64,000 bases of DNA from Paraburkholderia sp. PGU19. Its GTDB lineage: Bacteria; Pseudomonadota; Gammaproteobacteria; Burkholderiales; Burkholderiaceae. Positions 1,814 to 21,333 of the stretch are shown in pieces (position 1 is the first letter of the stretch; each line of letters opens with the position of its first letter). The notes under the pieces were generated by a model. That model made no database searches. It had not been told where the DNA came from and saw only the letters and a list, made by a program, of their open reading frames with translations. The stretch spans positions 1,984,001-2,048,000 of the forward strand of contig NZ_AP023180.1 in assembly GCF_013426915.1 (NCBI RefSeq), written 5' to 3'. A program made the translations under genes and the position numbers.

Positions 1814-1874
1814 GGTTGTCTCCTTGTAGGCCGGATTCGTCGTCCGGTCATCGGTGTTGTTCAGTGGGTGATGT

Positions 1875-7195: not shown

Positions 7196-7562
7196 ATGGT
7201 AGTGCGACTTGCTTCGCGTCTCGGGCTTTCGATCCGAAGCGGAGCGTTCACGTGACGACGATCAAACTTCAGGATCGCGAGCACGTCAATTCAATCTCCT
7301 GAAAACCCTCACCTTTGGGTCGCATTGGAGGATCACCCGTCTCAAGAAGAGCAGGTCGCTGCCTCCCGACTGCAGCCAAAAGCGCGGAATCTCGCGGAAA
7401 ACCGGGCTTTTTCGGCCCCGTGATCACCACGGAACACGCAAGCGGTGAGTGAAAATCATCTCACTCACCTCACTCCCGAAAACCCTCACCTCAAAGCAAT
7501 TCGGGCCACGACACGCAATCCCCCGCGCATCGTGGCCCGACTTTCAACCCATCAAGAGAAGC
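7196..7562. other. Intergenic stretch with short repeats, no gene seen
   Basis: This convergent spacer separates the SDR and the MFS gene. It contains a 14-bp direct repeat GAAAACCCTCACCT at 7301-7314 and 7478-7491, a TGAGTGA/TCACTCA dyad at 7446-7467, and the stronger hairpin listed separately. Short frames here have no recognisable protein features. Confidence 0.5.
7501..7540 (-). terminator. Hairpin downstream of the catabolic operon
   Basis: An 11-bp perfect stem (TCGGGCCACGA / TCGTGGCCCGA) encloses an 18-nt loop, just beyond the last gene of the leftward operon. There is no long T run on the minus strand, so it may act as a weak or 3'-end-protecting hairpin. Confidence 0.5.
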
Positions 7563-8966
7563 TTAAGCCTCCAGTTGCTCCAGCACCTTCCCCTTCGTCT
7601 CGATCCCAAGAAACTTCACGACCAGCGCCGCGCAAAACGGCACAACAGCCAGCAAATAAAACGCCATATCGAGATTCCCACCGACCATCGTCTTCGACAC
7701 CAGCGTCGGCGCAAAGATCGCCGCAAGCTTCAGCCACGCGCCGCCGACGCCGCACCCAAACGCGCGGATACTCGTCGGATACAACTCAGGCGTGTACACA
7801 TAAGCCGTGATGAACCCACACGCCAGCCAGCCGAGCGCGAACGCACAGCACGTCGCGACCACATAAACGGAAGCGTCATGGAACACGCCCGCCAGCACCA
7901 GCGACAACGCGCACAACATGAATGACCAGTTGATGATCGGCTTACGTCCGACCTTATCGACGAGCATCGCGCACAGCAGCGAACCGAGCACGCCGAGCAC
8001 GGAAGCGGCAACAGCCAGATTCAGCGCGAGCTGCAACGGCGCGTGATACACCGTGCGATAAATCGTCGGCAGCCACGTCGACAGACCATACTGGATCACG
8101 CCACACGTCATCCACAGCATCGCGACCGCCGCCGAGCGCTTCCAGTACGCCTTGCCGAACAGATCGCTCATCTTGCGCTTCGGGTGACGCGCAGCCATCG
8201 CTTCGAAACCGGCGGGATCTTCCATCGGCGGCAACGCGGTTTTGGCAGTACGTTCGAACGCGTGCACGGCATCGGCGGCTTCGTTCATGCGGCCACGTTC
8301 AGCAAGCCAGCGCGGCGATTCGGGTACCAGCTTGCGCAACACGAAGAACAGAATCAACGGCATGCCGCCGATAAAGTACATCGTCTCCCAGCCGAAGCGC
8401 GGCACGATCCACGCGCCCAATGCATTCGAAGCAAGCAGGCCGACCGGGAACACGATCTCGTACAACAGCACGAAGCGCCCGCGCCCATGCGCCCGGCAGA
8501 TTTCATTGATGTATGTCGCGGCCACGGGCAACTCGCCGCCAAGCCCGATGCCCTGCACGATGCGCAACACGAAGAACACGGCGAACGTCGGCGCGAAGCC
8601 GCACGCAATACTCGTCACGCCGATCACGCCCGAACTCAGTGCAATCGCCTTCACGCGGCCATGACGCTCCGCATACCACGGAAACAGAAACGCACCGATC
8701 AGCTGACCAACCGAGCTCGCGCCGATCATCAGGCCCACGTCCCACGGCGTCAGATGCCATTTGCCGATCAGGATCGGCAGCGTCGCGGCGATCGCGATGA
8801 CGTCGAAGCCGTCGAAGAACGTCGCGAGACCGATCAGTATGCGCGCGCGCACCAGCATTGCGTTCGCGGGCAATCGTTCGAGCCGCGCAATGATCGAGCC
8901 GCGCGTCGCGGGATGGGAGACACCGGCGCTGCTGTGTGCCTCAAACGTATTGTCGATAGTGCTCAT
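7563..8966 (-). CDS. MFS transporter, aromatic acid/metabolite:H+ symporter type
   Basis: The 467-residue protein has about 12 membrane helices. LIGLATFFDGFDVIAIAATL in the first helix is the DG(F/Y)D motif of aromatic-acid:H+ symporters. RIVQGIGLGGELPVAATYIN and PESPRWLAERGRMNEA are shared with the sugar-porter and metabolite symporter branches. It is the last gene of the 14-gene leftward operon, 27 bp after the ferredoxin reductase. It most likely imports the aromatic or heterocyclic growth substrate of that operon across the inner membrane. Substrate unknown. Confidence 0.88.
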   Translation of the reverse strand: MSTIDNTFEAHSSAGVSHPATRGSIIARLERLPANAMLVRARILIGLATFFDGFDVIAIAATLPILIGKWHLTPWDVGLMIGASSVGQLIGAFLFPWYAERHGRVKAIALSSGVIGVTSIACGFAPTFAVFFVLRIVQGIGLGGELPVAATYINEICRAHGRGRFVLLYEIVFPVGLLASNALGAWIVPRFGWETMYFIGGMPLILFFVLRKLVPESPRWLAERGRMNEAADAVHAFERTAKTALPPMEDPAGFEAMAARHPKRKMSDLFGKAYWKRSAAVAMLWMTCGVIQYGLSTWLPTIYRTVYHAPLQLALNLAVAASVLGVLGSLLCAMLVDKVGRKPIINWSFMLCALSLVLAGVFHDASVYVVATCCAFALGWLACGFITAYVYTPELYPTSIRAFGCGVGGAWLKLAAIFAPTLVSKTMVGGNLDMAFYLLAVVPFCAALVVKFLGIETKGKVLEQLEA

Positions 8967-8993
8967 GCGTCGTTTCTCCGCCCCGTACTGTGG

Positions 8994-10250
8994 TTAGGCA
9001 AGCGCTTTGTCGGCGTCGGCCAGAGCCGCGACATCGACCGTGCGCCCCTGGGTCATCCATTTGCGCGCGAGCTTCAGGTCGCGCGGCGTGTTGATCGCGA
9101 TCACGCCGCGCACGCCCCCGTCCGCGACATGAAAGAGCGTCGCGCGGCGCGCGCTGACATCGCCGCGCACGACGAGTTCGGCATCGGCGGGAATGTCGCC
9201 TAGAATCTGCAGGTTCACGTCGTATTGATCCGACCAGAACCACGGAATCTCCGCATACGGTTCGAACTGGCCGAGTGCGGCTTTCGCGGCGACGATCGCC
9301 TGGTTCTGCGCATTCGCCCACGATTCGAGCCGCACGCGCCGCTTCAACCACGCGCTCGGATGATTCGCGACATCGCCGCAAGCGAAGATGCGCGGGTCGT
9401 TCGTCATGCCGTGTTCGTCGACGACGATGCCGTCGTTCACAGGCAAACCCGCCGCTTCGGCAATCGATGTATGCGGTGTGAGCCCGATGCCCGCCACGGC
9501 GAAATCGGCATCGATGCATGTGCCGTCCGCGAGCGTCGCGCGCACTTTGCTTGCGTCTTCAGGATGCGTATCGAGCGAAGTCAATGCAGCTGACAAACGC
9601 ACATCGACGCCATTCGAGCGATGCAGATCGAGCAGGAAGTCCGACGCGAAAGGCGGCACCGAACGCGCACACAGACGCGGCGCTCCTTCTACCACCGTCG
9701 CCGCCACACCGAGCTTGCGCGCGGTCGCCGCGACTTCGAGACCGATCCAGCCGCCGCCGATCACGAGCACATGCTTGCTCGCGCGCAAACGCTCGCCGAG
9801 CGCGGACGCTTCGTCCAACGTGCGCAGATACGCGATGTGATCCGTCTTCACCAACGATGCTGGCAACTTGCGCGCCGCGCCGCCCGTTGCGATCACGAGC
9901 CGGTCGTACTGCACTTCGCGGCCCGATTGCGTGCGCACGACGCGTTGCGCGCGGTCGATCTGCGTCGCAACGTCCGGTTGCCAGGCTTCGACATTGAGCG
10001 AAGCGAAATCGTCGCTTGCGAAGAGGCGCACCGTGTCGATATTGGCATCACCCGACAGCACCGCTTTCGACAACGGCGGCCGCTCGTACGGCAGATGGAT
10101 TTCATCCGCGATCATCACGAGACGGCCTTCGAAGCCCGTCTTGCGCAGCGTCTTCACGACCCAGCCCGCAGCCTGGCCGCCGCCGATCACGACGATCGTT
10201 TGCGGTGCGTCCGCGTTGCTGGCAACGTTTGAAATGGCAGCGTCAGTCAT
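8994..10250 (-). CDS. FAD-dependent ferredoxin reductase of a Rieske oxygenase system
   Basis: A 418-residue flavoprotein of the HcaD/BphA4 type. It has an N-terminal FAD-binding IVVIGGGQAAGW, the PYERPPLSKAVLSG signature, a second NAD-binding fold VLVIGGGWIGLEVAA, and IFACGDVANHP. The C-terminal domain has the WFWSDQYDVNLQILG signature of oxygenase-coupled reductases. It passes electrons from NADH to the Rieske ferredoxin encoded at 20575-20892. Its start overlaps the extradiol dioxygenase gene by 8 bp (ATGACTGA). Confidence 0.92.
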   Translation of the reverse strand: MTDAAISNVASNADAPQTIVVIGGGQAAGWVVKTLRKTGFEGRLVMIADEIHLPYERPPLSKAVLSGDANIDTVRLFASDDFASLNVEAWQPDVATQIDRAQRVVRTQSGREVQYDRLVIATGGAARKLPASLVKTDHIAYLRTLDEASALGERLRASKHVLVIGGGWIGLEVAATARKLGVAATVVEGAPRLCARSVPPFASDFLLDLHRSNGVDVRLSAALTSLDTHPEDASKVRATLADGTCIDADFAVAGIGLTPHTSIAEAAGLPVNDGIVVDEHGMTNDPRIFACGDVANHPSAWLKRRVRLESWANAQNQAIVAAKAALGQFEPYAEIPWFWSDQYDVNLQILGDIPADAELVVRGDVSARRATLFHVADGGVRGVIAINTPRDLKLARKWMTQGRTVDVAALADADKALA

Positions 10251-11208
10251 GTTTGCGCTCCGTCATGAACTTGCCTTCCGGCGCCTTCGCGTCCTTCTGA
10301 CGGCGTGTGTTGCCGTCGATGCCGCCGTCGATCGCCCATTCGGCGAACACGGTCGGACCCGGTTCAAAATCGCGCGGCTGCCATTCAGGTGTGAGTTGAT
10401 CTTCGTCGGCGTAGTACTCGATCAGGCCGCCCGCCGGATTCTGGAAGTACCAGAAGTACGCGGACGAAACGGGGTGACGTCCCGGCCCGAGTTGCGTGTC
10501 CCAGCCGCAACGGCTGACGTGCATGCCGCCGCCGAATACTTCGTGTATGTCGCGCACGGTAAACGCGACGTGATTCAGCCCGCGCTTGCCTGTCGGCAGT
10601 TGCAGCAAAAAGATGTCGTGATGGCCGCCGTGCGGCGCGCAGCGCATGAACGCGCCACGGCCTGGATATCGGTCCGACATTTCGAATCCGAGTCGTTCCT
10701 GATAGAACTTCTCCTGCTCCGCGAGGCAGTTCGTGAAGAACACGACGTGGCCCACTTCGACGGGTTCCGCGCGCTCGTAGATGGGACTCGGGGTATCGAC
10801 GCGCAGCGTCTGGCCCCACACGTTCGACGGCGAACCGTGCACGTCGACGGCACGCTTGCGCGTCACTTCGATGCGGATCGCCATCCCGTTCGGATCAATG
10901 CAGCCGACGGCGCCGTCGTTCGAGTAATAGCCCTGCGCGCCTTTCAGGCTCACGCGGTATGTATCGAGATCGGAAGGCGTCGCGACACCCCACGTCACTT
11001 CACGCAGCGTCGGACCTTCTTCGAATGCGGGCGGCAGCGACGGATCGTTCGCCAGCATCGCGAGCACCGTGCAGCCGTTCAACGTTTCGAAGCGCGCGCG
11101 CGTTTCGTCGTGCGCGGTTTCCTTCATGCCCCAGTCGGCGAAAAAGCGCCGACAGGTATCCAGATCCGTCACGCCGTACGTGATCTGTTCAATGCCGAGA
11201 ATGCTCAT
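10243..11208 (-). CDS. Extradiol-type (VOC superfamily) ring-cleavage dioxygenase
   Basis: The 321-residue protein has two vicinal-oxygen-chelate domains, as in type I catechol 2,3-dioxygenases. The C-terminal domain carries the iron ligands in the expected order: H154 (EVGHVVFF), H213 (GLNHVAFTV) and E264 (GLIEYYADED). A tyrosine/histidine-rich loop (GRHPVSSAYFWYF) lies near the active site. It should cleave a vicinal diol ring next to the hydroxyls. It lies 13 bp after the aldehyde dehydrogenase and overlaps the reductase. The C-terminal tail after residue 280 is charged and longer than usual. Confidence 0.88.
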   Translation of the reverse strand: MSILGIEQITYGVTDLDTCRRFFADWGMKETAHDETRARFETLNGCTVLAMLANDPSLPPAFEEGPTLREVTWGVATPSDLDTYRVSLKGAQGYYSNDGAVGCIDPNGMAIRIEVTRKRAVDVHGSPSNVWGQTLRVDTPSPIYERAEPVEVGHVVFFTNCLAEQEKFYQERLGFEMSDRYPGRGAFMRCAPHGGHHDIFLLQLPTGKRGLNHVAFTVRDIHEVFGGGMHVSRCGWDTQLGPGRHPVSSAYFWYFQNPAGGLIEYYADEDQLTPEWQPRDFEPGPTVFAEWAIDGGIDGNTRRQKDAKAPEGKFMTERKHD

Positions 11209-11221
11209 GTTGCGTGCCTCT

Positions 11222-12718
11222 TCAGTTCGCCCACGCCAGCGGGGCGTCGTTCAAGCCCCAGTAGAGGCTCTTTTGCTGCATGTACTCACGAATGCCCAGG
11301 CGGCCTTTCTCGCGGCCCATGCCGCTTTCTTTCCAGCCTGAGAACGGCGTCGAAATCGAGAACAGCTTGTACGTGTTGATCCAGACCGTGCCCGCTTCGA
11401 GCGCGCGCGCGACGCGCCATGCGCGCTTGTAGTCGCGCGTCCAGATGCCGGCGGCGAGACCGAATACGCTGTCGTTCGCTTCTTTCAGCAGCGACGCTTC
11501 GTCGTCGAATGGCATCGCGACGAGCACGGGGCCGAAGATTTCCTCCTGGCAAATGCGCGCGTTGTTCGACAGACCTTCGAGAATCGTCGGTTGATAGAAG
11601 AAGCCTTGCTCGCGGCTATTGCCTACAGGCCGCTCGCCGCCGCACAGCAAACGTCCGCCTTCTTCGAGGCCGAGCGCCACATAACGCTCAACCGACTCGC
11701 GATGCTTCGCGGAAATCAGCGGACCCATCTGCGTGTTCTCGCTCGTGGGATCACCGACGCGCAATTCGCGCGCTTTCGCGGTGAGCCGCTTCATGAACTC
11801 GGGATAGATCGAGCGCTGCACGAACAGGCGCGAGCCCGCAATACACGCCTCACCCGACGAGCTGAAGATGCCGTACAGCACGCCGTTTACCGCATGATCG
11901 AGATCGGCGTCGTCGAAGACCATCGTCGGCGATTTGCCGCCGAGTTCGAGCGACACGGGCATCAGCTTGTCGGCGGCGATGCGGGCGATGCCGCGTCCCA
12001 CTTCGGTGCCGCCCGTGAACGACACTTTCTTCACGAGCGGATGGCGCACCAGCACATCGCCGATCACCGAGCCCTTGCCCGGCAGCACGCTCAGCACGCC
12101 CTTCGGCACGCCCGCTTCCTCGCAGATACGTGCAAGCGCGAGCGACACGAGCGGCGTTATTTCAGCGGGCTTCAACACGACGGCGTTCCCGGCTGCAAGC
12201 GCAGGCGCGAGCTTTTGCGCGTCGGAAGCGATGGGCGAATTCCACGGCGTAATCGCCGCGATCACGCCGATCGGCTCATGCACGCTCATCGTCAGATAGT
12301 CGCCGCGCGAGGGCGTCACTTCTTCGTCGAGCGTTTCGAGGCACGCCGCGAAGTAGCGGAACGTGTTCGCTGCGCTCGCGACCAGCACGCGCGTCTCGCC
12401 AATCGGCTTGCCGTTGTCGCGGCGTTGCAGCTGCGCGAGCGCTTCGTGCTTCGCCATGATCAGATCGGCGATGCGATACAGGATCAGCGCGCGCTGATGC
12501 GGCTTCAGACCGGACCAGTTCGGCTTGCGCCACGCGATGTCGGCGGCTTCGACGGCTTCGCGCGCATCGTCGGCATCGGCCGTCGTGATCTCGGTGTTCA
12601 CCGAGCCGTCGGCGGGATAGATGCTCGCGTACAGCGCGCCGCGGCCACGCTTCCATTCGCCGCCGACGAAGATATCGGCGGAAGGCACGAGGCTCGAAAT
12701 GATGTCGGTGTGGGGCAT
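11222..12718 (-). CDS. Aldehyde dehydrogenase
   Basis: A 498-residue NAD(P)-dependent aldehyde dehydrogenase of normal length. Recognisable are ITPWNSPIASDAQKLAPALA, FTGGTEVGRGIA, the general base region VSLELGGKSP and the catalytic cysteine in SSGEACIAGSRLFV, followed by EEIFGPVLVAMPF. In meta-cleavage pathways such an enzyme oxidises a semialdehyde such as 2-hydroxymuconic semialdehyde. Here the extradiol dioxygenase gene directly follows it, which supports that role, although betaine- or succinate-semialdehyde-like activity cannot be excluded. Confidence 0.92.
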   Translation of the reverse strand: MPHTDIISSLVPSADIFVGGEWKRGRGALYASIYPADGSVNTEITTADADDAREAVEAADIAWRKPNWSGLKPHQRALILYRIADLIMAKHEALAQLQRRDNGKPIGETRVLVASAANTFRYFAACLETLDEEVTPSRGDYLTMSVHEPIGVIAAITPWNSPIASDAQKLAPALAAGNAVVLKPAEITPLVSLALARICEEAGVPKGVLSVLPGKGSVIGDVLVRHPLVKKVSFTGGTEVGRGIARIAADKLMPVSLELGGKSPTMVFDDADLDHAVNGVLYGIFSSSGEACIAGSRLFVQRSIYPEFMKRLTAKARELRVGDPTSENTQMGPLISAKHRESVERYVALGLEEGGRLLCGGERPVGNSREQGFFYQPTILEGLSNNARICQEEIFGPVLVAMPFDDEASLLKEANDSVFGLAAGIWTRDYKRAWRVARALEAGTVWINTYKLFSISTPFSGWKESGMGREKGRLGIREYMQQKSLYWGLNDAPLAWAN

Positions 12719-12742
12719 GTCGTACTTCCTTTGACTGTCAGA

Positions 12743-13573
12743 TCAGATCACGCAGCGGGCCGCGCGATTACGCAGCGCGCGGATCGCGCTGAACGCGGTC
12801 AATGCAGAGGTCTTCGGATTGTCGGGCAGCGGCTTGCCGCTCATTTCAAGCGACATCTCGCCGAACGCGCCGCGCGCGACGATGCGATGCACGTTGCGCG
12901 TCACAGCGGGATCGGCGATGAGACGCACCATCGTCTGATCGAGGCCGAGTCCCGCGAGCGCGACAGTTGCCGCGACGTTCGCGTTCTTCGGATACAGGCG
13001 CGCCGCTTCTCGCGCGCTGCCTTCGAAAATCACGCGCGCTTCCGTCAGCGCTTGCAGATCGCAGAGTTGTTCGGCGGGCGTGCCGAGCCAGCCCGTCGGC
13101 GGCTTGCGACCGATGTACTGCACTTCGTCGAGGCCGCCGAGCTTCGCCGCCGCGAGCGCATCGATGCCGCCGATGGCACCTGACAACAGCGTCACCGTTG
13201 CATGGCCTTCATCGGCGGCGGCGTTCAGCGCTTCGAGCAGACTAAGATCCGACAGCGCGCCGATCGAAGCAACGGCGCAATCCGTGCCCGCTTTCAGCAG
13301 CGGCACGACATGGCTCACCAGCGCGCCGTGCCCGGCACATTCGAGCGCGAACTGCGGACGCGACTTCAACGCATCGACGGACCACACGACATCCACATCC
13401 GGCCCGACCTGCTCTCGCACAGCGTTGGCCTGATGCTCGGGCACGATCACATGCGACACATGCACTTGCGGATCGGTGGCAACGGCGTGGTACACGGTCT
13501 GACCGATCGCGCCGAAGCCGATCATCGCGATGTCGAGCGGCGTGTGATGATTGATGCCCGCAACGTTAGGCAT
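12743..13573 (-). CDS. nadX: L-aspartate dehydrogenase-like protein
   Basis: The chosen start gives 276 residues beginning [10 protein letters not shown]; a longer frame would run far into the ThDP enzyme gene. The Rossmann motif [17 protein letters not shown] is near residues 15-31. Family marks are [20 protein letters not shown], the [15 protein letters not shown] active-site segment, and [15 protein letters not shown] in the C-terminal domain. Characterised members oxidise L-aspartate to iminoaspartate with NAD(P). Its start overlaps the ThDP enzyme by 8 bp (ATGCCTAA). In this aromatic operon it could instead act on an amino- or imino-acid intermediate (inference). Confidence 0.85.
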
Positions 13574-15224
13574 GTTCAGGCTCCTGTTTGCGCACGGGCG
13601 GGCCGGCGAAGGCCGTGGCGAATGAACCGACCGACAGCATGTCCACTTCGACCAGCACCGGCCCGTTCTTCGCGATGCCTTCGCGGATAATGTCGTCAGC
13701 CTGATCCAGCGACGAAATGCGGTAGTGCGTGAGACCAAAGCTCGCGCAGAATTGCGCGAAATCGGGTTGATGCAGTTGCACGTAGCAGCGGCGGCCGCCG
13801 TAGTGCGCGTCCTGAATGTTGCGGATCACGCCGTAGCATTGATCGTTCATCAGCACGATCATCACGTTCGCGTTTTCCTGCACGGCTGTGACCAGTTCCC
13901 CGACGTTGACCATCAGGCCGCCATCGCCGACGAGGCATACAGTCTTCGCCGCCGCATCCGCGAGCGCCGCACCGATCGCCATCTGAATGCCCTGGCCGAT
14001 GCCGCCGCCCAGTGCATGCACGCCCGCGCGCGGCTGGAAGATCTTCAGCATGCGGTTGCCCCACGTGCTGTTCGAGATCGTCACGTCGCGCACCCAGTTA
14101 TAGTCGCGGCCCACGGCATGTTGCAGCACGTCGACGAGGCGCTTGTACGGTCCAAGTCCCTTGCCCGTCTCAGCGACAGCGACTTCGCGCGTCGCAGCGA
14201 GATCGCCTGCAAATGCAGGGTCGATCTTCATGCGGCCTTCGAGCAGCGTCGCGAGTTGATCGAGCACGGCGACTGCGTCGCCATGAACGAACAGTTCGTT
14301 GCGGTAGCCACGGTTGTCGGCGAGTGCGTCGGCGTCGACGCGGAACAGCGGCTGCGGCAGCGCGAGCTTGTACTTGAGCGTCTCGTTGCCGCGCAGACGC
14401 GAGCCGACTACGAGCAACGCATCGCAGGTCTTGTAGAATTTCTCAACCGTCGGCTGCACGTTGAATGCGCCGAGCGTCGCGGGATGATCTTCGGGCAGCA
14501 CGCCACGGCCCTGCACGCTAGTGACGACGCCGAAGCCGAGCTTCACGAGGCGCTCGACCTGCGCACGCGCATGACGCGTGCCGCCGCCGAGCCACAGCAA
14601 CGGGCGCTTTGCTTTCGCGAGTTCGTCGGCGAGTTGCTCGACGCGCTTCGTGTCGTGCGTCAGCGTGTTGACGTGCGGCGCGGCCATGTCGACGGGCCAT
14701 TCGATTTCGGCGGCCTGAATGTCGATAGGAATCTCGACACTGACGGGGCCGCTCGGCGCGGTTTGCGCGACGCGCACGGCTTCGCGAATCGTCGCGAGTG
14801 CGGTCTCGACGGAACGCACGCGGTATGCGGCCTTCGAAATCGACGAGAGCATCGCCAGTTGATCAGGCGCTTCGTGGATGTACGCGAGGTCCTGATCCAG
14901 ATACGTCGATTCGATCTGACCGGTGATATGCACGAGTGCCGTGCCTGCCGTCAGCGCCTCGACCATCGCGCCCGCTGCATTGCCCGCAGCCGTGCCCGTG
15001 CTCGTGAACGCGACGCCGAGGCCGCCCGACACGCGCGCCAGACCATCGGCCATGTTCAGCGCGCCCGCTTCGCCGCGTGCGCCGACATAGCGGATGTTGC
15101 CGCGCGTGTTGATCGCGTCGAGGATCGGCATGTTGTGGATCGAGATCACGCCGAATGCGGTTTTGACGCCGCATTGCTCGAGAAAAGCGGCGATCAGCTC
15201 GCCGACGGTGGTTTTGTTAGACAT
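13566..15224 (-). CDS. Thiamine diphosphate enzyme, acetolactate synthase-like
   Basis: The start at 15224 (552 residues) has GGAGG 11 nt upstream; an alternative start at 15248 would overlap that site. The protein has the three ThDP-enzyme domains. The catalytic glutamate E52 is in [18 protein letters not shown]. The central domain has [14 protein letters not shown], and the ThDP motif starts at [15 protein letters not shown] and ends about 27 residues later with the ND pair. It may be a decarboxylase or carboligase rather than a biosynthetic acetolactate synthase, because no regulatory small subunit or ilvC is near. Both ends overlap neighbours by 8 bp. Confidence 0.88.
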
Positions 15225-16023
15225 GACGTGCAACGCCTCCGGAGACATCGATATGGCTTCCCGTCGTGTACGACGACAGGGGTGTAGCGAGATAAAAGAG
15301 CGCTTGTGCGGCCTCTTCAGGACGGCCGAAGCGGCCGAGCGGAATGTGCTTGGTGCGCGCGAGTTCGCCGGTCCAGTCTTCCCAGCTTTGACCCGGCTTT
15401 GCCTGCGTCTGATAGCGGCGGCGCCATTGGCCAGACTCGACGATGCCGATCAGAATCGAGTTCACGCGAATGTCCTGCGGCGCGAGTTCGACGGCCAGCG
15501 ACTTGATCAGGTTCTGCACGCCCGCGCGCGCCGACGAGGTTGCGACCATATGCGGCTCGGGCTGCAATGCGAGTAGCGAATTCACGCAGACGATCGAGCC
15601 GTTGCCTTGCTGCGCGGCTTGCGTGAGCATCGGCAGAAATTCGCGGGTCGGTCGGATGACGCTGAAATACTTGAGGTCCAGTTCTTCGCGCCATGCTTCG
15701 TCGCTCGTGTCCGCGAAGGTCGATACGCGGCCCTGGCCTGCGTTGTTCACGAGCATGTCAGCGCGGCCGAAGCATTGCTGTACATCGTTTGCGAATTTCG
15801 TGACTTCGTCAGCATCCAGTACGTTGCAGCGCGCGGCCAGCAATTGCGCTTGCGGAAACCGGGCGCGTAGCGAAGCTTCGGCGCTCGCGAGCCGGTCGGT
15901 ATCGCGCCCGCAGATCGCTACCGATGCGCCGGCGCGCAAAAAGAGTTCGGCCGTTGCGAGACCGATGCCGGACGAACCGCCCGTCACGACTGCAACCTGT
16001 CCTGTGAGATCGATTTGAATCAT
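15217..16023 (-). CDS. SDR-family oxidoreductase
   Basis: A 268-residue classical SDR. TGGSSGIGLATAELF is the coenzyme site near residues 14-28, VNNAGQGRV follows near 91. The C-terminal part has VNSILIGIVESGQWRRRY and YTTGSHIDVSGG. The usual catalytic YxxxK appears altered: the corresponding segment reads PHMVATSSARAGVQNL, with no tyrosine-x3-lysine. So it may be a variant or non-classical enzyme. It shares one base with the IclR gene upstream and overlaps the ThDP gene by 8 bp. Confidence 0.85.
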   Translation of the reverse strand: MIQIDLTGQVAVVTGGSSGIGLATAELFLRAGASVAICGRDTDRLASAEASLRARFPQAQLLAARCNVLDADEVTKFANDVQQCFGRADMLVNNAGQGRVSTFADTSDEAWREELDLKYFSVIRPTREFLPMLTQAAQQGNGSIVCVNSLLALQPEPHMVATSSARAGVQNLIKSLAVELAPQDIRVNSILIGIVESGQWRRRYQTQAKPGQSWEDWTGELARTKHIPLGRFGRPEEAAQALFYLATPLSSYTTGSHIDVSGGVARHV

Positions 16024-16883
16024 CAGAGCCCCAATGCCTTCATGTATCTGCTTTCCGCCGACGGCCGATAGTTCAGCCGCAGCGACAGTTGCTCCGCCGC
16101 GCTGCGCACCTTGTCGATCAGGCCGCCGTCCAGCAGCGCCGCGTCGATCTGCGGACGCGGAATCGTCGTCGTGATCACAGCGGCGATACGGCCCGTGTCG
16201 TTGCGCACGGGCGCGCTGATGACGGAAATGCCGTTTTCAAAGGACGATTCGCTGATCGCGAAGCCGCGCAATGCGTCGTCCTTCACGCGCTCGTACAGTT
16301 CGTCGACGGTGGCGGGCGTGTGTTTCGTGAAGCGTTCAAGCGTCTTCTCCGGATACAGCGCGCGCAGTTCGTCGAGCGTGAGATCGCCCATCAGGACATG
16401 GCCATGCGTGGTCGCATGCGCGGGCAACCGCGTGCCGACGTTCACCTTCACCGAGCTGAACACGGGCGCGTGACTCTGCGCCTTCGCGACGAACACCACG
16501 TCGCGGCCGTCGCGGATCACGATGTGCGTGGTCAGTCCCGTCGCGTCGCGCAATCCTTCGATCAACGGCAAGCCGAGATCGGTGAGTTCAAGCGAGCTGA
16601 GATATTCGAAGCCGAGGCGCAGCACCGCGACGCCCAGGCGATAGTTGCGGTCGCGATCCGCGCGCTCCAGAAAGCCGAGCGATTCGAGCGTCTGCAGCAG
16701 ACGGAAAACCGTCGTGCGCGGAATGCCGAGGCGCTTCGACAACTCGGGCGCGCCGAGCACCGGCTCGCGCGGCGAAAATTCCGTGAGAATGCGCAGGCCG
16801 CGTTCGAGTCCGGGCACGCGGTAATTCGCGTCGTTGCGGTCGTCTTCTGCTTCAGGCGCAGTGCCCGTCAATTCGGGGGTCAT
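16023..16883 (-). CDS. IclR-family regulator inside the catabolic operon
   Basis: The 286-residue protein has an N-terminal winged helix (about 22-85; VPGLERGLRILTEF, LSKRLGIPRTTVFRLLQTLE) and a GAF-like IclR effector domain (THGHVLMGDLTLDELRALYP, SESSFENGISVISAPVRN). Its ATG overlaps the hydrolase stop by 4 bp, so it is made as part of the operon. It is strongly similar to the second IclR protein at 22517-23452. Likely operators are the palindromes at 20931-20948 and 21202-21220 (inference). Confidence 0.92.
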   Translation of the reverse strand: MTPELTGTAPEAEDDRNDANYRVPGLERGLRILTEFSPREPVLGAPELSKRLGIPRTTVFRLLQTLESLGFLERADRDRNYRLGVAVLRLGFEYLSSLELTDLGLPLIEGLRDATGLTTHIVIRDGRDVVFVAKAQSHAPVFSSVKVNVGTRLPAHATTHGHVLMGDLTLDELRALYPEKTLERFTKHTPATVDELYERVKDDALRGFAISESSFENGISVISAPVRNDTGRIAAVITTTIPRPQIDAALLDGGLIDKVRSAAEQLSLRLNYRPSAESRYMKALGL

Positions 16884-17773
16884 GCTTTACTCCAGTAACC
16901 GTCGCTCACGCGGCAGAAGGCGTCGATGAGCGCGGTGTATTCATTGCCCGCTTCGATATAGCCCGCGTGACCCGCGCGCGGGATGATCTGCAGGCGCGTG
17001 CGCGCCGCCTGCGCGATCCGCTCGCATGACGACGGCGGTGTGATCGTGTCTTCCGCGCCGACCGCGACGGCGATACGGCCGTTGATCTTCGCGACATCGC
17101 TGGCGAGGTCGGCGTTGGCGAGCAGATGCGTCGCCTGCGCGTAACCGGTCGACACGATGCGCGACATGTTCCAGCGCACCCAGTTACGCGATGCGTCGTC
17201 GGCATACGGCGACAGCATGTTGGCGCTGCGTTGGTCCGCGAGTCCTTGCGGGCCGAGTTCGGCAAGCATCGCGAGGCGGCTGTCGCGCTTCGACGCGCGC
17301 ACTTCTTCGGATGCCGCGCCGTAGCCCGCTGCGGGCGAAATCAGCAGCAGCCCCGCGACACGTTCCGCATGCGACGCTGCGAACGAGCCCGCGATGATCG
17401 CGCCGAGCGAATGCCCGATCAGTACGCAACGTTCTATCTTGAGCACATTGAGCCATTGCTCGAGCGCGCTCGAGTATTCGTTCGCGGTAGGCGAAGCCGA
17501 CGCAACGGGTGTCGATTCGCCGTAGCCCGGCGCGTCCCACGCGAACACGCGGCGCGTCGTGCCGAGCGATTCGAACTGTTGCACCCACGAAGCCGCGCCC
17601 GAGCCGATGCCGTGCAACAGTACGAGCGGCAACGCATCAGCGTGTGCGGCACCCGCTGCGCGATAACCGATCGCGCGTTGCGACGCAATCGCGATCCGCT
17701 GCGCCGGGAAGTGCGAGAGGCGCGTTTCCAGCGTGGCGTTTCGATCGGCAATGACGGGCAAGGCTGCGGACAT
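16880..17773 (-). CDS. Alpha/beta hydrolase
   Basis: A 297-residue alpha/beta-fold hydrolase. LVLLHGIGSGAASWVQQFE gives the oxyanion-hole HG, the nucleophile serine is in LIGHSLGAIIAGS, the acid is in VAVGAEDTITPP, and the histidine in RAGHAGYIEAGN. The size and order match meta-cleavage-product hydrolases and 3-oxoadipate enol-lactonases. Within this operon, C-C bond hydrolysis of a ring-fission product is the best guess. It lies 31 bp after the cupin gene and overlaps the IclR gene by 4 bp. Confidence 0.88.
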   Translation of the reverse strand: MSAALPVIADRNATLETRLSHFPAQRIAIASQRAIGYRAAGAAHADALPLVLLHGIGSGAASWVQQFESLGTTRRVFAWDAPGYGESTPVASASPTANEYSSALEQWLNVLKIERCVLIGHSLGAIIAGSFAASHAERVAGLLLISPAAGYGAASEEVRASKRDSRLAMLAELGPQGLADQRSANMLSPYADDASRNWVRWNMSRIVSTGYAQATHLLANADLASDVAKINGRIAVAVGAEDTITPPSSCERIAQAARTRLQIIPRAGHAGYIEAGNEYTALIDAFCRVSDGYWSKA

Positions 17774-17804
17774 GGGCTTCGCTTCTCGAATGATGTGCGT
17801 TGAT

Positions 17805-18344
17805 TTACTTCGCGAGATCGCGCTTGATCTTCGCCAGCGGCGAATCGGGCGGATACGTCGGTGTGATCGGCTTCGACGAACCGAGCATCACGCACATCAG
17901 CGCGTCTTCTTCACCGATGTTGATTTCCGTGCGATAAACGCCGGGCGGCACCGAAATCAGATCGCGTTCGCCGAGCACGGCTTCCCACGTTTCGCCGTCG
18001 CGCTCGCAGACCACTTTCATCTTGCCGCGCAACACGAAGAAGATCTCTTCGACGTCGGTATGAATGTGGCTAGGGCCGATGTTGCCGGCGGGAATCACCA
18101 TCGTCGAGAACGTGAAGTTGCCGGCGGGCACCGTGTTCATGTCTTTGGCGACACCCGTGCCGCCCGTGCCGACATAGCGCATTTGCGCCCGACGGTACTT
18201 CGGGTCGTAGTCGGCCTGGAACTTCAGCGCGTCCCAGTCGTAGCGGCGCGTTTCGAACCGCGCGACGCGCGTGTCCATCCATTGTTCGAAACTTGCGTCG
18301 GCGGGTTGATCCCACGATTTGCGTTCGAGATCGGCGTCGGCCAT
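17805..18344 (-). CDS. Cupin-domain protein (possible dioxygenase or isomerase)
   Basis: The start at 18344 has GGAGA 5-6 bases upstream and gives 179 residues; longer frames run into the SDR gene and look non-coding. The single cupin barrel (about 85-165) holds the metal-binding motif GPSHIHTDVEEIFFVLRGKM and a second motif ending PPGVYRTEINIGEEDAL. The N-terminal 80 residues are tryptophan- and arginine-rich without a known domain. Small cupins in aromatic operons include ring-cleaving dioxygenases and isomerases. Its step here is unknown. Confidence 0.82.
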   Translation of the reverse strand: MADADLERKSWDQPADASFEQWMDTRVARFETRRYDWDALKFQADYDPKYRRAQMRYVGTGGTGVAKDMNTVPAGNFTFSTMVIPAGNIGPSHIHTDVEEIFFVLRGKMKVVCERDGETWEAVLGERDLISVPPGVYRTEINIGEEDALMCVMLGSSKPITPTYPPDSPLAKIKRDLAK

Positions 18345-18379
18345 TGTTTTCTCCATGTGGTTTGCTGGTTCGAGCAAGG

Positions 18380-19138
18380 TCAATTCATCACGAAGCCGCC
18401 GTTCACGGGCAGCAACTGGCCCGTCACGAAGCGGGCGGCATCCGTCAGCAGGAAAAGCACGGGGCCCGTTACGTCGTCGGGCACCTGAGCACGCGTCAAG
18501 GCGCGGCCCTTCAGGTAATACTCGTGGCGTTCGGCGGGCACGTAGGCCGTCGCTTCGACTTCCGTGAGGCCGGGTGCAATCGCATTCACCGTGATGCCGT
18601 GCGCGCCGAATTCGCGTGCGAGCGAACGCGTCATTGCGATGACCGCGCCCTTGCTCGCAACGTATGCGAGCAGCTTCGGCGCGCCCCACATCGCCGTGTC
18701 AGAAGCGATATTGACGATCGCGCCGCGCTTCGAGTCGCGCAGATGCGGCAACGCTGCCGTACACATCAGCCACGTGCCGCGCACGTTGACGTTCATCACG
18801 GCGTCCCACGTTTGCGTGGTCAGCTCTTCTGCGAAGCGTCCGCCTGAGTTGGTGATGGCGGCGTTGTTGATCAGCGCGTCGATGCCGCCCATCTTTTGCG
18901 CGGCCTGTGCGACGAACGCATCGATGCTGTCGGGACTCGCGAGATCGAGCGGAACGAAGTGCACATTCGCGCCGAGCTTTTCCGCGAGCGCGTGGCCTTC
19001 CGCGTCGAGCACATCGCCGAACACGACACGCGCGTCGGCTTTAGCAAGCGCTTCGATGAACGCCGCGCCGAGCCCACGCGCGCCGCCTGTCACGACGACA
19101 CGCCGTCCGCTCAGGCTGGAGACCGTGACATCAGGCAT
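18380..19138 (-). CDS. SDR-family oxidoreductase (possible cis-diol dehydrogenase)
   Basis: A 252-residue classical SDR: VVVTGGARGLGAAFIEAL near residues 10-27, INNAAITNSGG, the active-site serine in VNIASDTAMW, YVASKGAVIAMTRSLARE containing YxxxK, and NAIAPGLTEVEATAYVP. Directly following the oxygenase alpha gene with an 8-bp overlap (ATGCCTGA), it is the natural candidate for oxidising the dihydrodiol product of the Rieske oxygenase to a catechol-type diol. That role is inference from position. Confidence 0.9.
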   Translation of the reverse strand: MPDVTVSSLSGRRVVVTGGARGLGAAFIEALAKADARVVFGDVLDAEGHALAEKLGANVHFVPLDLASPDSIDAFVAQAAQKMGGIDALINNAAITNSGGRFAEELTTQTWDAVMNVNVRGTWLMCTAALPHLRDSKRGAIVNIASDTAMWGAPKLLAYVASKGAVIAMTRSLAREFGAHGITVNAIAPGLTEVEATAYVPAERHEYYLKGRALTRAQVPDDVTGPVLFLLTDAARFVTGQLLPVNGGFVMN

Positions 19139-20219
19139 GAGCGTGCCCCGTCGACGCTTGCGCGCCCGCTTCCGCCTGCTTCGCGTTTAGCGCTTCGAGA
19201 TCGGCGAAATGCTGTTGCGCACGTTGACGCAGCATGCGGCGCACGCGCGTCATGCCGACATCGTGCTGATAGAGGAATTCGTGAGCACGCGCGTTCGGTG
19301 CGAGGCTTTCGAGCACATAGCGGTCTTGTTCGAGCACCGCCCAGTGCAGCCCTTCAAGACGATTGCGATACAGGAAGCGCCATGCGTCGCGCTGCCAGCC
19401 GCTCACCTTGCGCGTACGCCAGAAGTAGACCTGGCAGTTGTCGTTATCGACGGGCACCGCAAAGCCGACGATGCCGAAGCTGCCGCCAGGGCCGAACTTC
19501 TTCTTATAGGGAATCGCGAGTCGCATCCACAGGCAACCCGTTTCGCCGAGTTCGACCCAGTCGAAATTCACATCGCGCTGGCCGACCTTCTCGAACATGA
19601 GGCCAGTCTCGGTTTTACGCACGCGCATGTCGGCCTGCTTGTCGCCTTCTGCCATCGAATGCGACGTCGCGTGCAGATACGCGCCATGCATCGGGTCCAT
19701 CACGTTGTCGATCGCGTACTGATAGTTGCACTTCCAGTTCGATACGCACAAGAACTGCGAGTACTCCGCGCCGACCAGTTCTTCGGGCAGTGCGAGCGGC
19801 GTCGGCTCCTTGTGCGCGTCGTCGCCGAACCACAGGAAGATCGCGCCCGCATGTTCCTCAACGGGATACGACTTCACGCACTTCTGTCCTTCGAGCGGAC
19901 AGGCCGACACGGCAGGCACGGCCTGCACGGTGCCCGAGCCGTCGACTTCGATGCCGTGATACCAGCATGCGACGCGATTGCCGAGATTCCAGCCGAGCGA
20001 CAGGCGCGCGCCGCGATGCGGGCAACGGTCTTCGAGCGCGTGGACTTTGCCGTCCTGATCGCGCCACAGCACGATCTGCTCGCTGAGTCGCGTGAGGCCG
20101 ATGGGCGCATTGCCTACCTGCCAGCTCGGCGCGACGGGATACCAGTAGTTCTTGATGCCGCGATCGAGGTACGCCTGAATCGGATCGGCTGCGGGGCTCG
20201 TTGTATTGAGGGACGTCAT
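19131..20219 (-). CDS. Rieske non-heme iron oxygenase, alpha subunit
   Basis: The 362-residue terminal oxygenase has the [2Fe-2S] Rieske motif C66-P-H68 and C85-W-Y-H88, and the mononuclear iron ligands D175-P-M-H178 and H183 (DPMHGAYLH). GGAG precedes the ATG by 6 bases. No beta-subunit gene is present, so it probably works as an alpha homotrimer, like the phthalate and dicamba monooxygenase-type enzymes. Electrons would come from the ferredoxin at 20575 and the reductase at 8994. Substrate unknown. Confidence 0.93.
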   Translation of the reverse strand: MTSLNTTSPAADPIQAYLDRGIKNYWYPVAPSWQVGNAPIGLTRLSEQIVLWRDQDGKVHALEDRCPHRGARLSLGWNLGNRVACWYHGIEVDGSGTVQAVPAVSACPLEGQKCVKSYPVEEHAGAIFLWFGDDAHKEPTPLALPEELVGAEYSQFLCVSNWKCNYQYAIDNVMDPMHGAYLHATSHSMAEGDKQADMRVRKTETGLMFEKVGQRDVNFDWVELGETGCLWMRLAIPYKKKFGPGGSFGIVGFAVPVDNDNCQVYFWRTRKVSGWQRDAWRFLYRNRLEGLHWAVLEQDRYVLESLAPNARAHEFLYQHDVGMTRVRRMLRQRAQQHFADLEALNAKQAEAGAQASTGHAHA

Positions 20220-20261
20220 GGGGAAACTCCGTGTTCGCTTGATCGAGTGTTCGCGTGGCGC

Positions 20262-20573
20262 TTATTCCGCGAGCAGCCGCAGTTCCGCGGCGAGACGCTC
20301 TTCGCTCCACTGCGCGCCTTCCGGCGTGCGGAATCCGACGCCGTTCAGGCCCGCCACCACTTCATGCAACTCGACGGCACCTGCTTCGAACACCTGTTCC
20401 AGCGCGTTGCCGAAGTCGTTCTCGTATTGCGTCGGCTCCGCCTTACGCGTCTGCCAGATCATGTTCTCGGTTTCGCCCGGCTTTTCGATCACGCCCTTGC
20501 CGGCGACGTTGTTCGGCTGCGGCGCGAGCCACGGCTTCAGGAAAGGATTGAAGTTCACGACGGCTTCTTTCAT
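20262..20573 (-). CDS. Small protein between Rieske ferredoxin and oxygenase
   Basis: The 103-residue frame begins MKEAVVNFNPFLKPWLAP one base after the ferredoxin stop. It is acidic, with a predicted helical C-terminal half (ENDFGNALEQVFEAGAVELH, then EVVAGLNGVGFRTPEGAQWS and EERLAAELRLLAE). The last part resembles the small helix-turn-helix seen in some serine recombinases (R-T-P-x-G-x-x-W), which is how homologues tend to be labelled. There is no recombinase catalytic domain, so it is not a mobile-element gene. It may be an accessory or assembly factor for the oxygenase. Confidence 0.75.
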   Translation of the reverse strand: MKEAVVNFNPFLKPWLAPQPNNVAGKGVIEKPGETENMIWQTRKAEPTQYENDFGNALEQVFEAGAVELHEVVAGLNGVGFRTPEGAQWSEERLAAELRLLAE

Positions 20574-20574
20574 G

Positions 20575-20892
20575 TCATTCCACCTTGATCTGGATTTCTT
20601 CACCCGCGAGGCGCACCGCGTACACCTTCAGGTCGCGGCCGCCCGGCTCTTTCAGACACTTGCCCGTCGGGATGTGAAAAACGGCTTCGTGCAGCGGACA
20701 TTCGACCGTGTCGCCGTCGACGAAGCCTTGTGTCAGCAGCGCATACGCATGCGGGCAGACGTTCTCGAGCGCGTAGACCTCATCGCCCACCTTGTAGATG
20801 CCGATTTCCTTGCCGTCGCCGAGCTTGAACTCGACGGGCGCGTCTTCGGATAACGCGCCGGCGTGTCCGGCGCAAAGCCACTGTTCACTCAT
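20575..20892 (-). CDS. Rieske [2Fe-2S] ferredoxin
   Basis: A 105-residue ferredoxin subunit with C46-P-H48 and C65-P-L-H68 cluster ligands, in the normal spacing for biphenyl/toluene dioxygenase-type ferredoxins. It is the first gene of the leftward operon, 66 bp after a likely sigma-70 promoter. It carries electrons from the FAD reductase to the Rieske oxygenase. Confidence 0.93.
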   Translation of the reverse strand: MSEQWLCAGHAGALSEDAPVEFKLGDGKEIGIYKVGDEVYALENVCPHAYALLTQGFVDGDTVECPLHEAVFHIPTGKCLKEPGGRDLKVYAVRLAGEEIQIKVE

Positions 20893-20930: not shown

Positions 20931-20948
20931 TGTTCCACCTAAGGAACA
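20931..20948 (-). promoter_or_regulatory. Perfect palindrome, probable IclR operator
   Basis: TGTTCC-ACCTAA-GGAACA is an 18-bp sequence with perfect 6-bp arms. It lies about 18 bases downstream of the -10 box of the ferredoxin promoter, so binding there would block transcription. Two IclR regulators flank this operon and IclR proteins favour GGAAC-type palindromes, hence the assignment. Confidence 0.6.
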
Positions 20949-21170: not shown

Positions 21171-21220
21171 TTGACTCTCTATACTTTCCATAGGCGATAC
21201 ACATTCCCATAGGTGGAACA
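21171..21220 (+). promoter_or_regulatory. Porin promoter region with second operator-like site
   Basis: A TTGACT -35-like box at 21171 is followed at about 17-18 bases by a weak GCGATAC -10. The sequence 21202-21220 (CATTCCCATAGGTGGAACA) matches one strand of the 20931 palindrome at 14 of 18 positions, including an identical TAGGTGGAACA half. A related TTCCATAGG copy is at 21186-21194. The rest of the 441-bp divergent spacer shows nothing else. Confidence 0.45.
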
Positions 21221-21333
21221 AAGTACGGATAGCCGATGTGGCAGGCGACCAGAAGGCCATCCAGAGAGATGACAGGCAAAGGAAGAGAAACCGGCGCGTC
21301 CGGCTCTCGACTACACGATCAGGAGTACCAAGG

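What the first reader, a model, noticed from the sequence alone, without database searches (positions are those of the whole stretch)
7563..20892. Fourteen-gene catabolic operon with an unusual enzyme combination
The operon encodes a complete three-component Rieske oxygenase, a possible diol dehydrogenase (SDR), an extradiol dioxygenase, aldehyde dehydrogenase and alpha/beta hydrolase. It adds a cupin, a ThDP acetolactate-synthase-like enzyme and an aspartate-dehydrogenase-like protein. There is no hydratase-aldolase pair of a standard meta pathway. I know of no described pathway with this exact set, so it may degrade an uncharacterised, perhaps nitrogen-bearing, aromatic compound.
Basis: partly seen in the sequence, partly recalled or inferred. 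Interest (0 to 1): 0.75.

Follow-up and report, generated by a model that had tools for sequence, protein, structure and literature searches.

The report
Probable kynurenic acid degradation operon
A tightly packed 14-gene bacterial operon holds the set of enzymes that a breakdown route for kynurenic acid (a product of the amino acid tryptophan) described in the 1960s would need, so it probably supplies the missing genes of that old pathway, though no experiment has yet shown it.

Summary
The 14 genes are really there, on the minus strand at 7563-20892: junctions of -32 to +42 nt, a terminator-like hairpin after the last gene, and an IclR-type palindrome before the first in 77 of 77 related loci. 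The set is not rare: 74 of 80 fetched Burkholderia-group loci carry all 14 genes, and a core recurs in Cupriavidus, Acinetobacter, Klebsiella, Paracoccus, Novosphingobium and Streptomyces. Best explanation: kynurenate catabolism. The Rieske system plus SDR1 make 7,8-dihydroxykynurenate, the extradiol enzyme opens the ring, SDR2, ThDP enzyme and ALDH shorten the side chain, hydrolase and cupin open the pyridine ring, and aspartate dehydrogenase traps iminosuccinate as aspartate. The route balances atom for atom. In one genus an aromatic-aminotransferase operon within 10 kb of tryptophan dioxygenase occurs in 8 of 53 genomes, all among the 20 with the cluster, but this weakens to p=0.03 once genome size is controlled. 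The eight paper searches that ran (four more timed out) listed no gene assignment. Substrate, step order and last steps are inferred.

The parts
20575..20892 (-). Rieske ferredoxin, first gene of the operon
   Evidence: PF00355/PF13806; AndAb/HcaC-like by NCBIfam, below cut-offs
20262..20573 (-). 103-aa protein of family PF20552 (HTH_62), proposed partner or small subunit of the oxygenase
   Evidence: PF20552 89 bits; next to this oxygenase type in the opened plasmid regions, several kb away in three alphaproteobacterial ones; possibly fused to the oxygenase N-terminus in L195; model: disordered N-terminus plus three helices, no PDB match at E<=0.001
19131..20219 (-). Rieske oxygenase alpha subunit (VanA_C type), proposed kynurenate 7,8-dioxygenase
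   Evidence: PF00355 + PF19112; Rieske C66 H68 C85 H88 and mononuclear-iron H178 H183 D299 (with D175) kept in at least 93% of 37 sequences
18380..19138 (-). SDR1, proposed dihydrodiol dehydrogenase
   Evidence: adh_short; classical Tyr159/Lys163 kept in at least 93% of 31 sequences
17805..18344 (-). Cupin, proposed metal hydrolase or tautomerase in ring opening (start 18344 or 18356)
   Evidence: PF07883; H93, H95, E99 kept in at least 93% of 34 sequences; the usual fourth ligand position is not histidine in the window
16880..17773 (-). Alpha/beta hydrolase, proposed C-C or lactam hydrolase
   Evidence: PF00561; S122, D242, H269 kept in at least 93% of 30 sequences
16023..16883 (-). IclR-family regulator (PcaR/PcaU/PobR-like)
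   Evidence: PF01614/PF09339, NCBIfam subfamily below cut-off
15217..16023 (-). SDR2, atypical SDR with Thr/Arg in place of the catalytic Tyr/Lys; proposed side-chain C=C reductase
   Evidence: NF005468 469.7 bits, cut-off 266; T162 and R166 kept in at least 93% of 29 sequences
13566..15248 (-). ThDP-dependent enzyme, proposed 2-oxo-acid decarboxylase
   Evidence: PF02775/PF02776/PF00205; NF005470 954 bits, cut-off 495; best-scoring solved structure is an acetolactate synthase
12743..13573 (-). L-aspartate dehydrogenase, proposed trap for iminosuccinate
   Evidence: NF009826 equivalog 539 bits, cut-off 479; PF01958
11222..12718 (-). Aldehyde dehydrogenase, proposed 5-(2-formylethyl)-4,6-dihydroxypicolinate dehydrogenase
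   Evidence: PF00171; BADH/HpaE-like, below equivalog cut-offs
10243..11208 (-). Type I extradiol dioxygenase, proposed 7,8-dihydroxykynurenate 8,8a-dioxygenase
   Evidence: PF00903; H154, H213, E264 and H197, H245, Y254 kept in at least 93% of 31 sequences
8994..10250 (-). Ferredoxin reductase of the Rieske system
   Evidence: PF07992 + PF14759; HcaD/AndAa-like, below cut-offs
7563..8966 (-). MFS transporter, aromatic acid/H+ symporter type
   Evidence: PF00083/PF07690, TIGR00895 best but below cut-off
7501..7540 (-). Terminator-like hairpin after the last gene
   Evidence: 18-pair stem
20933..20946 (.). Palindrome TTCC-N6-GGAA upstream of the ferredoxin gene, proposed IclR operator
   Evidence: a TTCC-N5..7-GGAA site in 77 of 77 related loci, 0 of 77 in a control stretch inside the operon
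21204..21218 (.). Second palindrome, TTCC-N7-GGAA, upstream of the porin
21238..22407 (+). Divergent porin ORF, likely outer-membrane uptake (neighbour, outside the operon)
   Evidence: PF13609 158 bits
22517..23452 (-). Second IclR-family regulator (neighbour)
   Evidence: PF01614; a gene at that place in 76 of 80 loci

Best explanation
The operon is a kynurenate (quinoline-pathway) catabolic unit. Kynurenate enters through the porin and MFS transporter. The three-component Rieske system adds O2 at C7-C8; SDR1 rearomatises the diol to 7,8-dihydroxykynurenate; the extradiol enzyme cleaves C8-C8a to 5-(3-carboxy-3-oxopropenyl)-4,6-dihydroxypicolinate. SDR2 reduces the side-chain double bond, the ThDP enzyme decarboxylates the 2-oxo acid to an aldehyde, ALDH oxidises it to 5-(2-carboxyethyl)-4,6-dihydroxypicolinate. 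The hydrolase and cupin then hydrolyse the ring (lactam and C-C bond, two waters) to iminosuccinate plus glutarate, and aspartate dehydrogenase reduces iminosuccinate to L-aspartate. IclR proteins control the unit through the palindrome at 20933. Shown: gene content, operon layout, conservation, catalytic residues, atom balance. Inferred: substrate, order of steps, and the roles of SDR2, cupin and hydrolase. The intermediates are recalled from the classical literature, of which I saw only titles and one review sentence.
For: (1) Each recalled step has one enzyme of the right class and no core enzyme is left over; atoms balance, and the final ring opening to iminosuccinate + glutarate needs exactly two waters and no redox. 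(2) Aspartate dehydrogenase, odd in an aromatic operon, is explained by the ring N next to a 2-carboxylate. (3) Catalytic residues of the oxygenase, extradiol enzyme, SDR1 and hydrolase are kept across diverse loci. (4) Alternative entries fit quinolines. A flavoprotein like salicylate and 3-hydroxybenzoate hydroxylases occurs at 8 loci (the query's own L158, and 58-70% identical in L099, L103, L105, L139, L145, L146, L148); one is Vibrio L099, whose fetched locus has neither oxygenase nor SDR1, as expected if it hydroxylates 8-hydroxykynurenate (xanthurenate). A xanthine-dehydrogenase-type Mo enzyme lies next to or two genes from the oxygenase at 4 loci (the query's own L097 and three genomes of one genus, L198-L200), as would suit quinaldate. 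(5) In one genus (53 genomes) an operon of amino-acid permease and aromatic aminotransferase, with RidA in 7 of 8 and tryptophan dioxygenase in 5 of 8 (one cut by its contig end), occurs in 8 genomes, all among the 20 with the cluster, within 10 kb of tryptophan dioxygenase in 8 of 8. (6) A RidA-family gene lies near the oxygenase in L158 and L192; I read two more by eye in L195. (7) Papers seen: Taniuchi & Hayaishi 1963 title on 7,8-dihydroxykynurenic acid (reference list); Horibata 1961 title and a review sentence that pseudomonads turn kynurenate into glutamate, alanine and organic acids.
Against: Both concern a 54-56% identical oxygenase variant, tied to the window type mainly by L158, where that variant sits among eight genes 72-93% identical to the window's. 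In the window's own genome the one tryptophan dioxygenase found is on another contig beside kynureninase, the nearest relatives of the aminotransferase are two near-identical copies of which one lies beside a gene that I read as 4-hydroxyphenylpyruvate dioxygenase (tyrosine route), and none of the kynurenine-pathway queries hits the window. No tryptophan dioxygenase or kynureninase hit lies in the 80 Burkholderia-group loci. 5 of 15 cluster genomes tested lack tryptophan dioxygenase. P. aeruginosa lacking kynU accumulates kynurenate to 100 uM (PMC4938989, passages); I recall, untested, that PAO1 has a related cluster (PA3498-PA3511), which would be in tension. A CoA-transferase/acyl-CoA dehydrogenase pair next to the L104 cluster passes no glutarate cut-off and its relatives were found at no other cluster locus searched. 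Three of the four Mo-enzyme loci are from one genus. VanA_C-type oxygenases are often demethylases or monooxygenases rather than dihydroxylases (general knowledge).
Confidence: 0.6

Rival explanations
1. The same chemistry, but the natural substrate is another quinoline or N-heteroaromatic acid (quinaldate, xanthurenate, a plant or fungal quinoline alkaloid), with kynurenate at most an intermediate or side substrate.
For: Mo-hydroxylase at 4 loci and flavin hydroxylase at 8 loci suggest several entry routes; a GH3 beta-glucosidase-like gene and a TonB receptor precede the Novosphingobium ThDP gene, hinting at glycosides; 5 of 15 cluster genomes tested lack tryptophan dioxygenase.
Against: The permease/aminotransferase operon near tryptophan dioxygenase occurred only in cluster-bearing genomes of the one genus tested, which points to a tryptophan-derived quinoline.
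Confidence: 0.22
2. A meta-type pathway for an aromatic compound without nitrogen, in which aspartate dehydrogenase only assimilates ammonia or feeds oxaloacetate, and the ThDP enzyme and ALDH process an ordinary oxo acid.
For: Extradiol enzyme and ALDH resemble catechol and homoprotocatechuate enzymes; AspDHs of several bacteria, R. eutropha and P. aeruginosa among them, have been characterised as ordinary aspartate dehydrogenases (PMC5554190, passages seen; whether they belong to this cluster was not tested).
Against: AspDH is found with the set from Burkholderia to Streptomyces, though not in the fetched stretches of L199 and L200; RidA recurs; no hydratase or aldolase is recognised.
Confidence: 0.12
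3. The run is not one functional unit but two overlapping modules (oxygenase module; AspDH-ThDP-ALDH module) that happen to be adjacent.
For: In the fetched Vibrio locus L099 the ThDP-AspDH-ALDH-extradiol part occurs without the oxygenase, and in Novosphingobium L101 the two parts are about 2.5 kb apart.
Against: Gaps of -32 to +42 nt, one conserved palindrome, 74 of 80 loci with all 14 genes.
Confidence: 0.06

Closest known systems
Quinoline (kynurenate) pathway of tryptophan in pseudomonads, biochemistry of about 1961-63
   Same: Number and class of steps: dihydroxylation at 7,8, diol dehydrogenation, extradiol cleavage, decarboxylation to an aldehyde, oxidation to an acid (steps recalled)
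   Different: Known as activities only; no gene assignment was listed in the searches. The end to iminosuccinate + glutarate is my proposal
Anthranilate and 3-phenylpropionate dioxygenase electron-transfer chains (AndAa/AndAb, HcaD/HcaC)
   Same: Ferredoxin and reductase are of these types
   Different: Oxygenase is of the VanA_C type with no beta subunit among the 14 genes; scores below equivalog cut-offs
Dicamba O-demethylase DdmC, carbazole 1,9a-dioxygenase CarAa, 2-oxoquinoline 8-monooxygenase
   Same: Closest or detectable solved relatives of the oxygenase
   Different: The best matches cover the N-terminal half (about residues 20-190); none has a known HTH_62 partner as far as I recall
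Classical meta-cleavage operons (HpaE/HpaD, catechol 2,3-dioxygenase type)
   Same: Extradiol enzyme and ALDH class
   Different: No hydratase/aldolase recognised; ThDP enzyme, aspartate dehydrogenase and cupin instead

Membership tests
Kynurenate (quinoline) catabolic pathway | Multicomponent oxygenase plus diol dehydrogenase | tested here: met
   Ferredoxin, oxygenase, reductase and classical SDR present with catalytic residues; class only, not substrate
Kynurenate (quinoline) catabolic pathway | Extradiol ring-cleavage enzyme | tested here: met
   H154, H213, E264, H197, H245, Y254 conserved; class only
Kynurenate (quinoline) catabolic pathway | 2-oxo-acid decarboxylase and aldehyde dehydrogenase for the side chain | tested here: met
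   ThDP and ALDH families present; substrate not tested
Kynurenate (quinoline) catabolic pathway | Genomic link to tryptophan/kynurenine genes | tested here: inconclusive
   8 of 8 aminotransferase operons in cluster genomes of one genus, p=0.03 after size strata; none in the window or in the 80 Burkholderia-group loci
Kynurenate (quinoline) catabolic pathway | Growth on and turnover of kynurenate | not testable with these tools
   needs bench work
Standard meta-cleavage pathway | Hydratase-aldolase pair | tested here: not met
   none recognised among the 14 genes
L-aspartate dehydrogenase | NCBI equivalog cut-off | tested here: met
   539.4 vs 479 bits
Classical short-chain dehydrogenase (SDR2) | Catalytic Tyr-x3-Lys | tested here: not met
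   Thr162/Arg166 kept in at least 93% of 29 sequences
Ring-hydroxylating oxygenase with PF00848 alpha subunit | PF00848 domain | tested here: not met
   9 matches in the genome, none in the operon

The most novel reading that the evidence does not exclude
This is the complete, previously unassigned gene set for kynurenate breakdown, including the three enzymes that I recall as orphan activities (kynurenate 7,8-hydroxylase, dihydrodiol dehydrogenase, 7,8-dihydroxykynurenate 8,8a-dioxygenase); it ends by hydrolysing a dihydroxypicolinate to iminosuccinate, which aspartate dehydrogenase captures as aspartate, and its oxygenase needs a new kind of small partner protein (PF20552).
Probability: 0.4. 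Interest if true: 0.78.

Novelty: new variant of a known kind. Interest (0 to 1): 0.62.

Why it matters
Kynurenate is a neuroactive and immunoactive tryptophan product; a 2024 review says bacteria metabolise it but, in the passage that I saw, names no genes. If right, a biochemical route about 60 years old gets its genes, a widespread soil-bacterial operon gets a function, a conserved protein of unclear role becomes a likely oxygenase partner, and a physiological role is suggested for some known aspartate dehydrogenases, if they are orthologues (not tested). It would also allow kynurenate use to be predicted from genomes.

Tried and rejected
Structure of the oxygenase: the model was poor (mean pLDDT 44.5) and was not used. 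Fold search with the small protein: no PDB match at E<=0.001, so the name 'recombinase-like HTH' is neither confirmed nor replaced. No PADLOC match at E<=1.

Glutarate genes next to the cluster as a test of the predicted end product: only L104 showed a CoA-transferase/acyl-CoA dehydrogenase pair, neither passes a glutarate-specific cut-off, and the search used that pair and the window's CoA-transferase as queries, not a proven glutaryl-CoA dehydrogenase; not counted as support. Window genes 473-4012 (MFS, HMG-CoA-lyase-like, CoA-transferase) were considered as part of the route and dropped: among the cluster loci the CoA-transferase was met only in L010 and L011.

Tryptophan dioxygenase co-occurrence: 8 of 12 vs 50 of 288 in the order (p=3e-4; not size-controlled) and 20 of 20 vs 20 of 33 in the genus; the latter vanished among genomes of 4 Mb or more, so neither is counted. 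Tryptophan dioxygenase in the same region as the cluster in G208 is one case and not counted. Of the five Burkholderia-group loci with a roughly 30%-identical 'aminotransferase' after the operon, I read four (L017, L018, L050, L069): regulators with an N-terminal DNA-binding part, by eye; L015 was not read.

Partner protein, results against: L194 has an oxygenase relative (51%) with no PF20552 protein detected; of the 20 stretches taken around PF20552 matches, seven with weak matches show no cluster gene (L149, L150, L153-L156) or only stray ones (L151), and L152 shows only the small protein on a short contig.

Selections: the best 15 of the 29 PF20552-positive genomes were given; 41 chosen loci were given to the conservation count, and per family only sequences above a score and length limit were kept (29-37 per enzyme with the window, 26 for the small protein). 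The class-wide draw found the oxygenase only in the own genome (1 of 369). Variovorax L102 has a ThDP relative without the set.


Full report
What is there. The window lies in an 11.2-Mb genome of 5 contigs; the best matches of its ThDP protein in public genomes are in Paraburkholderia and Burkholderia. Fourteen genes run on the minus strand from 20892 down to 7563: Rieske ferredoxin, a 103-aa PF20552 protein, Rieske oxygenase, SDR1, cupin, alpha/beta hydrolase, IclR regulator, SDR2, ThDP enzyme, aspartate dehydrogenase, aldehyde dehydrogenase, extradiol dioxygenase, ferredoxin reductase and MFS transporter. The 13 junctions are -32 to +42 nt. An 18-pair hairpin follows the last gene. A divergent porin and a second IclR gene lie upstream. 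A palindrome TTCC-N5..7-GGAA occurs within 420 bases before the ferredoxin start in 77 of 77 related loci with enough sequence (39-55 bases before it, with N6, in the 25 printed), and in 0 of 77 control stretches inside the operon. I conclude that the run is one regulated operon.

How common it is. Of those 80, 74 carry all 14 genes; five of the other six are cut by contig ends and L023 lacks only the transporter. In the genus of the window 84 of 117 genomes have the oxygenase at E<=1e-50; in a draw of 300 genomes of the order 12 do, and in 369 of the class only the own genome. Diverged sets occur in Cupriavidus, Caballeronia pNK84, Acinetobacter, Klebsiella, Paracoccus, Pseudosulfitobacter, Nitratireductor, Novosphingobium, Vibrio and Streptomyces. 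The recurring core is oxygenase, PF20552 protein, SDR1, SDR2, hydrolase, cupin, extradiol enzyme, ThDP enzyme, AspDH and ALDH; ferredoxin, reductase and transporter vary. The fetched Vibrio locus L099 has no oxygenase or SDR1, and AspDH was not met in the fetched stretches of L199 and L200.

Are the enzymes intact? In alignments of 26 to 37 sequences (window included) from 41 chosen loci the oxygenase keeps both metal sites, the extradiol enzyme keeps its iron ligands H154, H213, E264 and the catalytic H197, H245, Y254, SDR1 keeps Tyr/Lys and the hydrolase Ser/Asp/His (the assignment of these residues to functions is general knowledge of the families). SDR2 has Thr162 and Arg166 where classical SDRs have Tyr and Lys, and keeps them across the set, so it is unlikely to be an ordinary alcohol dehydrogenase. 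The small protein is predicted to have a disordered N-terminus and three helices without a PDB match at E<=0.001. Its strong matches accompany this oxygenase type, though several kilobases and transporter genes can separate them; L194 has an oxygenase relative without a detected partner, and weak PF20552 matches occur away from the cluster. In L195 a related stretch may be fused to the oxygenase N-terminus (E 0.019 with a database size that I set to 100,000), which suggests an oxygenase partner rather than a recombinase.

What it most likely does. The classical kynurenate route, as I recall it, runs: kynurenate, 7,8-dihydrodiol, 7,8-dihydroxykynurenate, 5-(3-carboxy-3-oxopropenyl)-4,6-dihydroxypicolinate, 5-(2-formylethyl)- and 5-(2-carboxyethyl)-4,6-dihydroxypicolinate. 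Each conversion needs one class of enzyme that the operon has, in the number it has them. I add the end: the acid plus two waters equals iminosuccinate plus glutarate, and iminosuccinate plus 2H is aspartate; all eight reactions balance. This uses the two remaining candidates for hydrolysis (alpha/beta hydrolase, cupin) and explains the aspartate dehydrogenase, a member by NCBI's cut-off. A balance is not proof of a route. From the literature I saw only the title of Taniuchi and Hayaishi 1963 in a reference list (PMC5610271), the title of Horibata 1961 and one review sentence (PMC11354673), and passages of PMC4938989 and PMC5554190; passages of PMC11354734 and PMC13151070 added nothing on bacterial kynurenate breakdown.

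Independent hints. First, alternative entry genes: a flavin hydroxylase related to salicylate and 3-hydroxybenzoate hydroxylases at 8 loci (L158, from which the query came, and 58-70% identical in seven more), one of them Vibrio L099, whose fetched locus has no dioxygenase or SDR1; and a Mo-hydroxylase next to or two genes from the oxygenase in 4 loci, three of them from one genus. Xanthurenate and quinaldate would need just such enzymes. Second, RidA-family imine deaminases near the oxygenase in L158 and L192, and by eye in L195. Third, a tryptophan link: in the genus of G196, 20 of 53 genomes carry the cluster. An aminotransferase at least 84% identical to that of G196, an aromatic amino acid transaminase by NCBI's cut-off, in an operon with an amino-acid permease (8 of 8), RidA (7 of 8, the eighth cut by its contig end) and tryptophan 2,3-dioxygenase (5 of 8), occurs in 8 of 53, all within the 20. 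The carriers are spread over several branches of the oxygenase tree but missing from one deep branch of four, and the gene always lies within 10 kb of a tryptophan dioxygenase gene.

Against. The tryptophan-dioxygenase correlation in that genus disappears among genomes of 4 Mb or more (20 of 20 vs 19 of 20). The aminotransferase link concerns a 54-56% identical oxygenase type; the bridge to the window type is Caballeronia M1242 (L158), where that type sits among eight genes 72-93% identical to the window's. The window's own genome shows no kynurenine genes near the operon, and its relatives of the aminotransferase look like tyrosine enzymes. None of the 80 Burkholderia-group loci shows tryptophan dioxygenase or kynureninase. 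Five of 15 cluster genomes tested lack tryptophan dioxygenase. P. aeruginosa without kynU accumulates kynurenate, which would be awkward if PAO1 has a related cluster, as I recall but did not test. No enzyme activity can be shown here.

Is it in print? Eight paper searches ran; four more timed out. They combined PA-locus tags, aspartate dehydrogenase, dihydroxykynurenate, Rieske, xanthurenate, quinaldic acid and phrases for kynurenate degradation. None of the listings showed a paper that ties genes to kynurenate breakdown; longer listings were cut at 15 to 20 papers. The library holds open-licence papers only, so subscription papers and preprints could hold it.

Verdict. Observation confirmed; interpretation partly supported. 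The operon is real, apparently intact and widespread. Most likely it degrades kynurenate (0.6), with other quinoline acids as main rival (0.22). It is a proposed new gene assignment for an old pathway, hence a new variant of a known kind rather than something categorically new.

Noticed in passing
window 15217-16023: SDR2 family (NF005468) has Thr and Arg in place of the catalytic Tyr and Lys, conserved across diverse loci: an unexplained atypical SDR.
   Followed up: partly
L195:1511-2791: An oxygenase whose N-terminus resembles the PF20552 protein, in a stretch with a Mo-enzyme large subunit, an FAH-family hydrolase and, by eye, RidA proteins: perhaps another N-heteroaromatic pathway.
   Followed up: partly
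L097 and L157 (Caballeronia sp. NK8 plasmid pNK84): A second, partial copy of the set (ferredoxin, small protein, oxygenase, ThDP enzyme, extradiol enzyme) with a Mo-hydroxylase and an aminotransferase gene that appears broken into two frames.
   Followed up: partly
L085:18440-18835 and L087:18460-18852: RidA-like genes (34-35% identity, minus strand) beyond the transporter end of the cluster in two Burkholderia loci.
   Followed up: no
window 29383-30459: Type VI secretion TssG homologue (PF06996), about 8.5 kb from the catabolic operon.
   Followed up: no
window 32420-37041: Asparaginase_2 family enzyme followed by an ABC transporter ATPase of the oligopeptide type and a solute-binding protein.
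   Followed up: no
window 473-4012: MFS transporter, HMG-CoA-lyase-like enzyme and family III CoA-transferase in a row; among the cluster loci the CoA-transferase was met only in two close relatives (L010, L011).
   Followed up: partly
L098, L104, L105: Alphaproteobacterial versions carry a flavodoxin-domain protein after the reductase and no Rieske ferredoxin hit, plus a longer cupin (about 315 aa) with two regions matching the cupin query.
   Followed up: no
L106 (Klebsiella aerogenes NCTC10006): Ferredoxin reductase and aldehyde dehydrogenase are each annotated as two open frames; described only.
   Followed up: no
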